DNA of 64,000 nucleotides from Solirubrobacter deserti (GTDB taxonomy: Bacteria; Actinomycetota; Thermoleophilia; Solirubrobacterales; Solirubrobacteraceae), in assembly GCF_027587175.1 (NCBI RefSeq), contig NZ_JAPCID010000015.1, positions 1-64,000 on the forward strand, written 5' to 3'. Numbering within the stretch: position 1 is the first letter of the stretch; the number at the start of each line of letters is the position of its first letter. The notes under the pieces are model-generated. The model ran no database searches, was not told the origin of the DNA, and saw only the letters and a list, made by a program, of their open reading frames with translations. Made by a program: the position numbers and the translations under genes. Of the stretch, positions 2,158 through 14,308 are shown piece by piece.

Positions 2158-3939
2158 ATGCGCCGACTCGCCGGTCTGCTGCTGGCGCTGTGCGGCACGC
2201 TCGCCGTGGCGGGCGTCGCGGCGCCGGCGGCGAACGCGGGTGACGTGTGGCTGTGGGTCTGCCAGGGGCCTGAGGGTCAGCCGCTGCCCCAGACGGGCGA
2301 TCGCGCCTCGAGAGCCGGCGGTGACGCCGCGGCCAACCGCTGCGGTGACGCCTCCGGGCGCGCGCTGACCGCGCGCCCCGCCTCCGGCCGCGCGGGGTGG
2401 TCGTTCTCCGTGCCGAGCCCGACGACGTTGAGGAGCGTCAAGCTCAACCGGAACGTGAGCCTTACGGAGGGCCAGCGCTACCAGCTGCTGGTCGGCGACA
2501 CGCCGTTGGAGACCGCCGCCCCGGTCAACGGCGCGGCGGCGTACGACGCGACCGGCTCGCGCGTGGCCTTCGACGTCCAGTGCGTCGCCACCCGGTGCGA
2601 CACCCCGGGCGGCGCCGAGGTCTCCTCGCTCGCGATGCGGGTCAGCGACACCGCGGCGCCCACGGGCGCGGTGGCCGGCTGGCGCAACCCGGCTTCCGGC
2701 GCGATGAAGATGGAGGTCAGCGCGATCGACAACGGAGTCGGCCTCAAGGAAGCGGTGCTCGCGGTGGACGGCGTGGAGAAGGGTCGCGCCACGTTCGGCG
2801 GCCCGGACCCGGCCTGCAAGGACCTGTCCAGCGACCCGGCTTCGGTCGACCTGGCATACGGGCTCGTCGGCCAGAACGACGTCGATTTCCAGCCCGTCGG
2901 CTGCATCACCCGCGGGCGCGTGGAGCTCAACCTCGACACGACCTCGCTTCCCGAGAGCTTCACCGCGGCCGACCTGCGCGTGATCACCGTGACCGTCACC
3001 GACCACGCCGGCAACGCGACCACGGTCATGACCCGCGGCACCGAGGTCATCAACCGGCAGCTGATCGAGAACATCCCGCAGCGCTCGCTGGTGATCGGCT
3101 CGAGCTTCACCGACCCGTTGATCCCGCAGCCCGGCAGCCCGGGCGGCGGCGTCCAGGGCGCCCAGGCGTCGTCGCCGGGCACGTGCGCCAACCCCGCCCT
3201 GACGATGGTCCTCGACCAGCCGCCGCTGCGGACCACGCGCGGCGTCATCGTCCTGCGGCGCAACAAGCGCTACCGCTTCGCGGGCCGCCTGACCTGCACC
3301 GTCGGCGGCGTCCGCCGCTCGGCGCCCAAGCGCACGCGGATCGACATCCGCACCACGATCGGGGGCAGGACCCGGAACGCGACCGCCCGCACCGGCGAGC
3401 GGGGCGCGGTCCGGGCCTTCCTGCGCGCGTCCCGCTCCGGCGCGGTCGTCTTCCGCTACACCAGCCCGGGCGGCAAGCGCTCGCAGGTGACGATCCGCTT
3501 CCGCGTCGAGCAGTCCCTGCCCCGCGGCACGACGATCTACGGCCGCTGGCTGCGCTACGAATCCCCGAGCGACCGCGTCCGCTTCACCGAGCTGGAGGCG
3601 CGCAAGGTGCCCGCCGGCGCGACGGTCACCGTCCGCTGCCGCGGCAGCGCCTGCCCCGGTGCCCTGGCCCGAAGCTTCTCGGTCGGCAAGTCCGCCCGCG
3701 GGTCGATGTCGCTGCTGGCCGCGGTGAACGGTGCTTCGCTGCGCCCGGGCGCCGCGATCGACGTCACGATCACCAAGCCCGGCTTCGCGGGCATCGGCAA
3801 GCTCTACTGCGTGCGCTCGGGCCAGAAGGTCCAGACCCGCTCCTACCGGGTGGGCGAGAACCGCCCGGCCTGCAGCGCGGGCGCGAGCGCCGCGGCCAAG
3901 CGCCCGCGCATCCGCGGCGCGATCCGCGAATCGGGCTGA
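2158..3939 (+). CDS. Secreted multidomain protein with lineage-type C-terminal beta domain
   Basis: The start chosen is ATG 2158, because it directly precedes a clean signal peptide (MRRLAGLLLALCGTLAVAG, cleavage near ANA-GDV). A GTG at 2119 would add 13 residues. The mature protein is about 560 residues and Thr/Ala/Gly-rich, with Ig-like beta patterns in the middle (SDTAAPTGAV, TVTDHAGNATT). The C-terminal ~110 residues match the pattern GATVTVRC..G-x-C, then a LKPGxxIxVxVxxP-like core and a final Cys. This domain recurs in two other secreted proteins of the window (10006-11631 and 20707-22119). It is likely a cell-surface or matrix protein, but the function is unknown. Confidence 0.8.
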   Translation: MRRLAGLLLALCGTLAVAGVAAPAANAGDVWLWVCQGPEGQPLPQTGDRASRAGGDAAANRCGDASGRALTARPASGRAGWSFSVPSPTTLRSVKLNRNVSLTEGQRYQLLVGDTPLETAAPVNGAAAYDATGSRVAFDVQCVATRCDTPGGAEVSSLAMRVSDTAAPTGAVAGWRNPASGAMKMEVSAIDNGVGLKEAVLAVDGVEKGRATFGGPDPACKDLSSDPASVDLAYGLVGQNDVDFQPVGCITRGRVELNLDTTSLPESFTAADLRVITVTVTDHAGNATTVMTRGTEVINRQLIENIPQRSLVIGSSFTDPLIPQPGSPGGGVQGAQASSPGTCANPALTMVLDQPPLRTTRGVIVLRRNKRYRFAGRLTCTVGGVRRSAPKRTRIDIRTTIGGRTRNATARTGERGAVRAFLRASRSGAVVFRYTSPGGKRSQVTIRFRVEQSLPRGTTIYGRWLRYESPSDRVRFTELEARKVPAGATVTVRCRGSACPGALARSFSVGKSARGSMSLLAAVNGASLRPGAAIDVTITKPGFAGIGKLYCVRSGQKVQTRSYRVGENRPACSAGASAAAKRPRIRGAIRESG

Positions 3940-11715: not shown

Positions 11716-12375
11716 CTACACGCGGCGGTAGAGCCGGCCGGGCCGCCCCGGCCCTTCCGAGCGCTGGGAGCCCGTGTCCTCGAGCAGCCCGGTGGCGCGC
11801 ATGTCGCGGCGGAAGTTCGCCGCGTCCACCACTTCCCCGCGCAGCGCCTCGTACAGCAGCTGCGCCTGCTTGAGGGTGAACGGCTCCGGGAGCAGCGCGA
11901 GCGCCTTGCGCACGAACCAGACCTTGTCGGCGACGCGCGCGTGCAGGCGCCAGATGCCATCGTCGACGATCGTCGCGTGGTCGAGCGCCAGCTCCGGCAG
12001 CCGGTCGACGGGATGCCAGGACGCTTCGCGCTCCGCCGGCCCGTCCTCCGGCAGCGTCTCGGGTCGCACCAGGGCCATGTAGGCGATCGACGGCAGCCAG
12101 CCGCGCGGGTCGCGCGACGGATCGGCGTACGTGCGCAGCTGCTCCAGGTGCACGCTCCCGACGCCGGTCTTCTCGCGCAGCTTGCGCTCGGCGGTCTCGC
12201 TGGGGCTCTCGCTCGCGCCCACGAACCCGCCCGGGAGCGAGAAAAGCCCGCGCTGCGGCTCCTCCAGCCGGCGCGCGAGCAGCACGCACAGGCGCCCGTC
12301 GAGCAGCGTGAACACCACGGGATCGGCGGTCAGGCCGATCGGCGCCTCGTAGCCCGCGGTGTTCGTGGCCTTCAC
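11716..12375 (-). CDS. Nudix-domain regulator, NrtR-like
   Basis: This 219-residue protein has an N-terminal Nudix fold (LFSLPGGFVGASESPSETAE) followed by a C-terminal winged-helix part (FTLKQAQLLYEALRG, VDAANFRRDMRATGLL, GRPGRLYRRV). This is the two-domain architecture of NrtR, the ADP-ribose-sensing repressor of NAD genes. The Nudix box deviates at the metal-binding positions: RKLREKTGV stands where REUxEExGU is expected, so two glutamates are lysine and hydrolysis is unlikely. Its GTG overlaps the stop of the upstream fusion gene (GTGA). The regulated genes are not evident in this window. Confidence 0.8.
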   Translation of the reverse strand: MKATNTAGYEAPIGLTADPVVFTLLDGRLCVLLARRLEEPQRGLFSLPGGFVGASESPSETAERKLREKTGVGSVHLEQLRTYADPSRDPRGWLPSIAYMALVRPETLPEDGPAEREASWHPVDRLPELALDHATIVDDGIWRLHARVADKVWFVRKALALLPEPFTLKQAQLLYEALRGEVVDAANFRRDMRATGLLEDTGSQRSEGPGRPGRLYRRV

Positions 12376-13955
12376 TGCACCGCGGCGCCGACGACGTTCT
12401 TGACCGCGGCGACGAACGCGTCGACGTCCTCCTCGGTCGTGTCCCAGGAGCACATCCAGCGCACCTCGCCGGTGTGCTCGTTCCAGACGTAGAACTTGAA
12501 CTCGCGCTGGAGCTCCTCCGCCGCGCCCGGCGGCAGGATCGCGAACACGCCGTTGGCCTGGACGGGCTGGGTGAGCTGCACCACCTCGCGCACGCCGTCG
12601 GCGAGCCGGGCCGCCATCGCGTTGGCGTGGCCGGCCGAGCGGCGCCACAGGTCGCCCTCGAGCAGCGCGAGCAGCTGCGCCGAGATGAAGCGCATCTTCG
12701 ACGCCAGCTGCATCGACTGCTTGCGCAGATACAGCAGCGAAGGCGCGATCTCCGGGTGCAGGACGACGACCGCCTCCGCCGCGAGCAGGCCGATCTTCGT
12801 CCCGCCGAAGGAGACGACGTCCGCGCCCTCGACCACCTCGCGCAGGGAGACGTCCAGCGACGCCGCCGCGTTGGCCAGCCGCGAGCCGTCGATGTGGAAC
12901 AGCATTCCGTGCGCGTGCGCGTGATCGGCCAGCGCGCGCAGCTCGTCGACGCTGTAGAGCGTTCCGAGCTCGGTCGACTGGGTCACGGAGACCACGCCGG
13001 GCTGCACCGAGTGCTCATCGCCGATCCGGATCACGCGTGTGTCCACGAGCTCCGGCGTCAGCTTGCCGTCGGGTGTGGCGACCGTGAGCAGCTTGATGGC
13101 GCCCATGACCTCGGGCGCGCCGCCCTCATCCACGTTCAGGTGCGCGGTCTCGGCGCACACGACGCCCTGCCACGGCCGCAGCATCGCCCGCAGGCCGACC
13201 ACGTTCGCGCCCGTGCCGTTGAAGACGGGATAGATGTCGCGCGTGCCGAAGACGTCCTCGGCCCGGTCGCGCAGCTGGTCGGTCCACTCGTCGGCCCCGT
13301 AGGAGACGGCGTGCCCGGTGTTGGCCGCCGCGATGGCCTCCAGCGCTTCGGGGAGGATCGGGGCGTAGTTGTCGGAGGCGAAGGCGCGCATCGGCGGTGA
13401 CTTTAGGACGCGCACGGTCACGGTTCCCGGCGGGACCTCCGTCAGGCCCGCGTCGCGCACCTCGGCGACGCAGTTGTCCATCGCGTCCCAGCGTTCCGGG
13501 ACGATCACCCGCGCGCGGCTCACGTCGAGGCCGAGCGCGTCCGCCATCACCGCGGCGTGCGCGATCTGGGCGAGCGTCTTGCCCGTGCTCATGTGGACAT
13601 CCGGGTTGATGGCGTAGACGACGGGCGCGGACGAGCTGGACGGCGGCGGGTCGAGCTCGGTCGACATCGCCTGGATCTTGGTCAGCGTCTCCGAGCGCTC
13701 CGAACGCCGCCGCGGCGGCAGCGCGATCACGCCGTCCCCACCGCTCGCGTGCGGCTCTTCCAGCAGCCGCGCGAACTGCGAAGGCTGGCGCGCCCGCAGC
13801 ACGACCTTCCCCGCCCGCCGCCGCCACTCGTCCGGCAGCTCGAACTGCTTGGTCGCCCGCACGGCCGCGAGCCCCACCATCCGTCCACCCTCGCTCAACG
13901 ACGTGAACGCGCCGCGCCGGATGACGATGTACATCCGGTAGGGATCGTCGGTCAC
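12372..13955 (-). CDS. Fusion of peptidyl-tRNA hydrolase (PTH2-like) and threonine aldolase
   Basis: GTG 13955 overlaps the upstream stop by four bases. Residues 1-190 resemble the two-part actinobacterial peptidyl-tRNA hydrolase: RMYIVIRRGAF and EWRRRAGKVVLRAR, a Pro/Ser linker, then MSTGKTLAQIAHAAVMADAL and VRDAGLTEVPPGTVTV. From about residue 193 (MRAFASDNYAPILPEAL) a full PLP fold-type-I threonine aldolase follows. It has FHIDGSRLANAAASL and the PLP lysine in SFGGTKIGLLAAEAV. No stop separates the two halves, and there is no convincing ribosome-binding site before the internal ATG. Proteins like these are normally separate, so this is either a true bifunctional protein or loss of a stop codon. 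Confidence 0.8.
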   Translation of the reverse strand: MTDDPYRMYIVIRRGAFTSLSEGGRMVGLAAVRATKQFELPDEWRRRAGKVVLRARQPSQFARLLEEPHASGGDGVIALPPRRRSERSETLTKIQAMSTELDPPPSSSSAPVVYAINPDVHMSTGKTLAQIAHAAVMADALGLDVSRARVIVPERWDAMDNCVAEVRDAGLTEVPPGTVTVRVLKSPPMRAFASDNYAPILPEALEAIAAANTGHAVSYGADEWTDQLRDRAEDVFGTRDIYPVFNGTGANVVGLRAMLRPWQGVVCAETAHLNVDEGGAPEVMGAIKLLTVATPDGKLTPELVDTRVIRIGDEHSVQPGVVSVTQSTELGTLYSVDELRALADHAHAHGMLFHIDGSRLANAAASLDVSLREVVEGADVVSFGGTKIGLLAAEAVVVLHPEIAPSLLYLRKQSMQLASKMRFISAQLLALLEGDLWRRSAGHANAMAARLADGVREVVQLTQPVQANGVFAILPPGAAEELQREFKFYVWNEHTGEVRWMCSWDTTEEDVDAFVAAVKNVVGAAVQ

Positions 13956-14308
13956 AGGTTCACGCCGAGCCAGACGATCACGAGCGAGACGAGCAGGATC
14001 GCGCCCTGCAGCCAGTGGGCGGCACCCCACTTCAGGTGCGCCAGGATCAGCCCGCCGGCGACCACGAACAAGGTGAGCTTCGCGTGCAGCGTCGAGTCGT
14101 CCCACAGATCGCGATCGCTCGCCATCCACGCGCCCGTCGCCAGCAGCACGGCCAGCGCGGCCAGCGACATCCAGCCGAACCGCCGCGCGACGGCCCGCAG
14201 CCCTTCCCGGTCGCGGCCGCGCAGCCCCGGCACCACCGCGAGGCCGAGGACCAGCTGCCCGCCGACGAACGTCGCCATGGCGAGCAGGTGTAGATAGAGC
14301 GCGAGCAT
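13952..14308 (-). CDS. Four-helix membrane protein, hypothetical
   Basis: ATG 14308 gives 118 residues, nearly all membrane: LYLHLLAMATFVGGQLVLGL, WMSLAALAVLLATGAWM, HAKLTLFVVAGGLILAHL and GAILLVSLVIVWLGV. The layout, with an early histidine in helix 1 and a loop GRDREGLRAVARRFGW, resembles CopD/DUF2269-type small integral membrane proteins. Its stop overlaps the start of the downstream fusion gene (GTGA), so the two are probably translated together. The function is unknown. Confidence 0.75.
   Translation of the reverse strand: MLALYLHLLAMATFVGGQLVLGLAVVPGLRGRDREGLRAVARRFGWMSLAALAVLLATGAWMASDRDLWDDSTLHAKLTLFVVAGGLILAHLKWGAAHWLQGAILLVSLVIVWLGVNL

What the first reader, a model, noticed from the sequence alone, without database searches (positions are those of the whole stretch)
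12372..13955. In-frame fusion of peptidyl-tRNA hydrolase and threonine aldolase
Residues 1-190 match the actinobacterial PTH2-type peptidyl-tRNA hydrolase, and residues from about 193 match a complete PLP threonine aldolase. No stop lies between VTVRVL and MRAF, and the internal ATG lacks a clear ribosome-binding site. Linking tRNA recycling to threonine/glycine metabolism has no textbook precedent. The alternative is loss of a stop codon between two coupled genes.
Basis: partly seen in the sequence, partly recalled or inferred. Interest (0 to 1): 0.65.

Follow-up and report, generated by a model that had tools for sequence, protein, structure and literature searches.

The report
Inverted gene fused to threonine aldolase
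In one group of Solirubrobacter soil bacteria, a tRNA-recycling enzyme gene flipped around and became joined, without a stop codon, to its neighbour, a threonine-splitting enzyme; a hidden promoter right at the seam probably lets the cell still make the second enzyme on its own.

Summary
On the minus strand (13955 to 12372) one 527-codon frame encodes a PTH2-type peptidyl-tRNA hydrolase followed by an L-threonine aldolase. It is not a sequencing error: the frame is open in five assemblies of four Solirubrobacter species (87-100% identical). It was not found elsewhere: in two other Solirubrobacter the genes sit head-to-head, and in other genera they are unlinked.

Trees and gene order point to one event. 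The PTH2 gene was inverted in place between a membrane-protein gene and the aldolase gene, which left it without its own stop.

The seam carries a nucleotide-level signal. TANNNT, the actinobacterial -10 box, occurs once in each ~1.59-kb gene, always exactly 8 nt before the aldolase ATG. It includes a rare Leu codon (CTA, 0.7% of Leu codons) kept in all four species. Internal start codons almost never have this (3 of 2986), whereas gene starts often do (22 of 163), as do 19 of 42 unfused aldolase relatives.

Best reading: one locus, two products. These are a PTH2-aldolase fusion translated from the upstream operon, and free aldolase from an internal leaderless promoter. A tRNA-recycling/threonine link is not supported. 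RNA and protein tests are needed.

The parts
12372..13955 (-). Fused ORF PTH2-threonine aldolase, 527 aa, GTG start, TGA stop
   Evidence: Translation; open in 5 assemblies of 4 species
13404..13955 (-). Two-part actinobacterial PTH2-type peptidyl-tRNA hydrolase, residues 1-184; core motifs GKTLAQIAHAA (from residue 125) and RDAGLTEVPPGT (from residue 167)
   Evidence: PF01981; PDB 1rzw, 1wn2 matches; purifying selection, dN/dS 0.10-0.32; motif positions
13392..13406 (-). Junction: CTA AAG TCA CCG CCG (residues 184-188), Leu codon CTA plus a 4-codon linker
   Evidence: Same length in 4 species, linker residues vary
13400..13405 (-). TAAAGT, predicted -10 box (TANNNT) of an internal leaderless promoter, 8 nt before the aldolase ATG
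   Evidence: Only TANNNT in the gene in each of 4 species; background 3/2986 internal starts against 22/163 gene starts
13422..13427 (-). GGAACC, 16 bp before the -10 box; holds one of only two A/T-ending fourfold codons conserved in all 4 species; possible upstream promoter element (inference)
12375..13391 (-). L-threonine aldolase (PLP fold type I, Lys387 in GGTK), with its own ATG at 13391-13389
   Evidence: PF01212; 5vye E 3.1e-75; many unfused relatives in the same family begin at the same place
13952..14308 (-). Small membrane protein gene upstream (start at 14308 chosen by similarity to relatives); its TGA overlaps the GTG start of PTH2 (GTGA)
   Evidence: overlap present in all four fused species
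11716..12375 (-). NUDIX-type protein gene downstream; its GTG overlaps the stop of the aldolase (GTGA)

Best explanation
In the ancestor of one Solirubrobacter clade, the PTH2 gene, which stood head-to-head with the aldolase gene, was inverted in place. Its 3' end, probably already without a nearby stop, now ran in frame into the aldolase. The locus now makes two proteins: (a) a PTH2-aldolase fusion, translated from the operon by coupling to the upstream membrane-protein gene (GTGA overlap); and (b) free aldolase, from a leaderless mRNA started by a -10 box (TANNNT) embedded in the last codons of PTH2, 8 nt before the aldolase ATG. Shown: the open frame, its conservation, the gene orders, the tree, the conserved box and its rarity inside genes. 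Inferred: the direction of the inversion, promoter activity, the presence of both proteins, and retained enzyme activity. The simplest functional view is two independent enzymes on one chain, with the internal promoter allowing untagged aldolase to be made as well.
For: Fusion: full-length 1-527 matches without stops in G000/G133, G138, G134 and G135. PTH2 there has no stop of its own yet stays under purifying selection, so any functional PTH2 must come off the ribosome attached to aldolase. Inversion: G137 has membrane(-), PTH2(+), aldolase(-), while the fused clade has all three on one strand. G136 is also head-to-head, and the PTH2 tree puts G137 next to the monophyletic fused clade with G136 outside. 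The junction bases GTCCTAGTG are shared by G137 and G135. Stand-alone PTH2 genes end in their own stop in other genera. Promoter: TANNNT is found once per gene, at gap 8, in all four species. It is enriched before gene starts but not internal starts (22/163 against 3/2986, Fisher p about 2.5e-26). Only 2 of 276 fourfold columns keep A/T in all four species, both just upstream of the ATG. CTA is 0.7% of Leu codons. 19 of 42 unfused aldolases have TANNNT 5-11 nt before a candidate start, against 0.4% at random positions. Literature: TANNNT about 12 bp before the start (counted from its first T) marks leaderless genes in Actinobacteria (PMC3160421); in M. tuberculosis new TANNNT motifs often create start sites, and a two-domain gene has an internal start before its second domain (PMC3898074).
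Against: No RNA or protein data. The four fused species are one clade, so conservation counts one origin; a rough estimate gives the 4-codon linker about even odds of staying free of stops without selection. The gap of 8 nt is slightly longer than the commonest gap of 6-7 nt, so the mRNA may carry a 1-2 nt leader. No convincing -35. The start-codon calibration used mechanically chosen starts from 400 kb of one congener. The aldolase tree does not resolve the G136/G137 branching.
Confidence: 0.66

Rival explanations
1. Only the long fusion protein is made, as a bifunctional enzyme selected for linking the two activities; the TANNNT at the seam is a leftover with no function.
For: Open frame and constant linker length in four species; both parts under purifying selection.
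Against: The rare CTA codon and the -10 box are conserved although the antisense stop codon that explains CTA in G137 is no longer opposite it. No linkage of the two genes was seen outside this genus. No pathway is known to join the two reactions.
Confidence: 0.15
2. Mostly free aldolase is made; the PTH2 part is little translated or dispensable, and the fusion is a harmless by-product.
For: A canonical Pth1 gene exists in the genome; PTH2 is patchy in the order, 21 of 232 genomes.
Against: The PTH2 part keeps dN/dS of 0.10-0.32 and the GK...H and DAGLTE motifs in the fused clade.
Confidence: 0.14
3. A +1 frameshift at GTC-CTA ends PTH2 at the out-of-frame TAA/TAG that overlaps the -10 box, so separate PTH2 is also made.
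For: TAA, TAA, TAG, TAG are present in the +1 frame in the four species.
Against: No known slippery sequence; the purine after TA could be chance; the same bases are explained by the -10 box, and G137 has CTAG there for another reason.
Confidence: 0.03
4. Assembly or sequencing error joins two separate genes.
For: Only that the window is from a draft assembly.
Against: Five assemblies of four species have the same open frame, with substitutions but no indels at the junction.
Confidence: 0.01

Closest known systems
Actinobacterial PTH2-type peptidyl-tRNA hydrolase (PF01981)
   Same: Core motifs GKTLAQIAHA and DAGLTEVPPGT; the two-part layout recurs in stand-alone relatives in the family, and other Actinomycetota have matches spanning about residues 42-181
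   Different: No stop of its own; continues into an aldolase
L-threonine aldolase of the 5vye / 1v72 group (PF01212)
   Same: Aligned from the third residue after the internal ATG nearly to the end, including the GGTK lysine
   Different: Carries a 188-residue N-terminal extension made of PTH2 in the long form
Leaderless genes of Actinobacteria (PMC3160421, PMC3898074)
   Same: TANNNT about 8 nt before the start, no Shine-Dalgarno
   Different: The box lies inside the coding sequence of the fused upstream domain
Lineage-specific bacterial gene fusions, e.g. M. tuberculosis chimeras from deletions (PMC7671302)
   Same: Structural change joins neighbouring genes in frame; one example shown by mass spectrometry there
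   Different: Here the join is attributed to inversion of a single gene, not deletion

Membership tests
PTH2 peptidyl-tRNA hydrolase | Match to PF01981 above the gathering score | tested here: met
   37.4 bits against 23, though the match is broken up and no single stretch passes on its own; the profile search of the whole genome missed it
PTH2 peptidyl-tRNA hydrolase | Conserved GK(x)3Q(x)2HA and DAGLTE(V/I)PPGT motifs | tested here: met
   Residues from 125 and 167, aligned with 1rzw and 1wn2
PTH2 peptidyl-tRNA hydrolase | Hydrolysis of peptidyl-tRNA | not testable with these tools
   Needs an assay
L-threonine aldolase | PLP fold type I with the catalytic lysine | tested here: met
   PF01212; 5vye E 3.1e-75 with GGTK aligned
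L-threonine aldolase | Substrate specificity for threonine | not testable with these tools
   Below the NCBIfam cut-offs of the PRK10534 and GntG models; nearest solved relatives are called L-threonine aldolase
Conserved fusion gene | Same in-frame join in independent genomes | tested here: met
   Four species, five assemblies
Conserved fusion gene | Independent recurrence outside one clade | tested here: not met
   No further full-length fusion among 232 order genomes or 399 class genomes
Leaderless gene (aldolase) | TANNNT close before the start and no Shine-Dalgarno | tested here: met
Leaderless gene (aldolase) | Transcript 5' end at the start codon | not testable with these tools
   Needs 5'-end mapping

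The most novel reading that the evidence does not exclude
A single-gene inversion built a fusion gene that yields two proteins under selection: a PTH2-aldolase chimera from the operon and free aldolase from a leaderless promoter whose -10 box is written into the reading frame through a protected rare codon. The two may assemble into mixed aldolase oligomers carrying a tRNA-binding enzyme.
Probability: 0.4. Interest if true: 0.62.

Novelty: new variant of a known kind. Interest (0 to 1): 0.45.

Why it matters
Fusions between enzymes are often read as evidence of a shared pathway. Here the history is visible in living relatives (stand-alone, head-to-head, antisense overlap, fused), and it points to a chromosomal accident made tolerable by an internal promoter. 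It offers a testable model of how leaderless initiation lets Actinobacteria survive, and perhaps exploit, accidental gene fusion. It also warns against inferring function from domain fusion alone.

Tried and rejected
AlphaFold2 on the fusion: the aldolase folds with fair to good confidence, but the PTH2 part has block pLDDT mostly 21-37, probably because only three PTH2-bearing rows were in the alignment, so nothing is claimed on domain geometry. Whole-genome profile search with PF01981 in the own genome found nothing at E 0.001, although the protein scores above the curated cut-off, so family-profile absence elsewhere is not used. Apparent longer matches in G118, G121 and G152 were set aside: the PTH2-only search found no PTH2 there. 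An inverted repeat at the breakpoints was looked for by eye in G137 (GCGCAC/GTGCGC), but it does not reproduce the present junction exactly, so it is not claimed. Laying the whole genome for a larger promoter statistic was not possible, so 400 kb of congener G134 were used. Literature on a PTH2-threonine aldolase fusion: none found in the held library. An ECF-type promoter (GGAAC at 13427) was considered; the spacing to a typical ECF -10 does not fit well.

Full report
1. Observation. The finding's coordinates hold an open frame on the minus strand, GTG 13955 to TGA 12372, of 527 codons. Residues 1-184 are the PTH2 part (PF01981; motifs from 125 and 167), and residues 189-527 match beta-eliminating lyase/threonine aldolase (PF01212, E 2.9e-52). 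By sequence the best solved relative of the second part is the L-threonine aldolase 5vye (E 3.1e-75), and of the first part archaeal Pth2 (1rzw, 1wn2). There is no stop between VTVRVL and MRAF.

2. Not an error. The window is a Solirubrobacter (100% to strain CPCC 204708). The same full-length frame without stops occurs in five assemblies of four species: G000/G133 (100%), G138 (91%), G134 (87%) and G135 (87%). Junctions: GTC CTA AAG TCA CCG CCG ATG; GTC CTA ATG TCA CCG CCG ATG; GTC CTA GAG TCG AAG CCG ATG; GTC CTA GTG TCT GAG CCG ATG. Linker residues vary; length does not.

3. Where it is not. In G136 and G137, of the same genus, the genes are neighbours but head-to-head. In other genera with PTH2 (G020, G025, G005, G006, G010, G011) PTH2 stands alone with its own stop; where both genes were found, the aldolase lies on another contig or far away. 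No further full-length fusion appeared in 232 genomes of the order searched with PTH2 or 399 of the class searched with the fusion. A survey of 396 genomes of the phylum found 16 PTH2 carriers; fusion to aldolase was not examined in those.

4. How it arose. In G137 the order is membrane protein (minus), PTH2 (plus), aldolase (minus); in the fused clade all three share a strand. So the PTH2 gene alone has changed direction. The PTH2 tree places G137 beside the fused clade (100/100) and G136 outside; the fused group is one clade (98/99; 100/98 in the aldolase tree), so head-to-head is most simply ancestral. In G137 PTH2 already lacks a nearby stop and runs 49 codons past its conserved end, antisense to the membrane gene; its CTA codon there is the reverse of that gene's TAG stop. 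G135 still shares the bases GTCCTAGTG with G137. After inversion, the PTH2 start overlaps the membrane gene's stop (GTGA) in all four species, and its tail runs into the aldolase.

5. A second signal at the seam. Each fused gene (about 1590 bp) contains exactly one TANNNT, and in all four it ends 8 nt before the aldolase ATG (TAAAGT, TAATGT, TAGAGT, TAGTGT). Its TA lies in the codon CTA, 0.7% of Leu codons in genes from 400 kb of G134 and the only CTA in the gene in each species. Of 276 fourfold columns with unchanged residues, only two keep A or T in all four species, alignment columns 178 and 185, both in the 40 nt before the ATG (chance about 0.002). In 400 kb of G134, TANNNT lies 5-9 nt before 22 of 163 first start codons but only 3 of 2986 internal ATG/GTG. 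Among 42 unfused aldolase loci of the family, 19 have TANNNT 5-11 nt before a candidate start, against 0.4% at random positions, including both head-to-head congeners (TATCGT). Zheng et al. (PMC3160421) interpret such boxes as leaderless genes, and Cortes et al. (PMC3898074) mapped them in M. tuberculosis, including an internal start in a two-domain gene.

6. Mechanism. The fused clade therefore probably makes a PTH2-aldolase fusion by translational coupling from the operon, and free aldolase from the embedded leaderless promoter. PTH2 has no other in-frame stop and stays under purifying selection (dN/dS 0.10-0.32 by halves), so a working PTH2 must be tolerated with the aldolase attached. A canonical Pth1 gene is present elsewhere, so PTH2 is unlikely to be the only peptidyl-tRNA hydrolase. 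The open linker alone is weak evidence for selection on the fusion: by rough estimate (not a tool result) a stop would have appeared only about half the time.

7. Verdict. The conserved intragenic promoter box is the more interesting part and is directly testable.

Noticed in passing
L042 6834-7535 (G137): PTH2 of G137 has no stop near its conserved end and extends 49 codons antisense through the 3' end of the neighbouring membrane-protein gene: a convergent coding overlap.
   Followed up: partly
L052 around 3170-3900 (G136): In G136 PTH2 ends with its own stop, followed directly by a sequence that looks like a tRNA gene (by eye, not run through ARAGORN); the PTH2 3' end may hold its promoter.
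   Followed up: no
window 13404-13955: The PTH2 protein looks like two PTH2-like halves in tandem, the first degenerate (a possible pseudo-dimer); the layout recurs in stand-alone relatives in the family.
   Followed up: no
window 11716-12375: NUDIX protein with a C-terminal region resembling a winged helix (NrtR-like, from memory), overlapping the aldolase stop by GTGA.
   Followed up: no
G000:C109:4115-4882: A second, distant aldolase homologue (28% identity) exists in the genome, so the fused aldolase may not be the only one.
   Followed up: no
L072-L091 (400 kb of G134): TANNNT 6-9 nt before start codons is common in Solirubrobacter, indicating many leaderless genes in this little-studied class.
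   Followed up: partly
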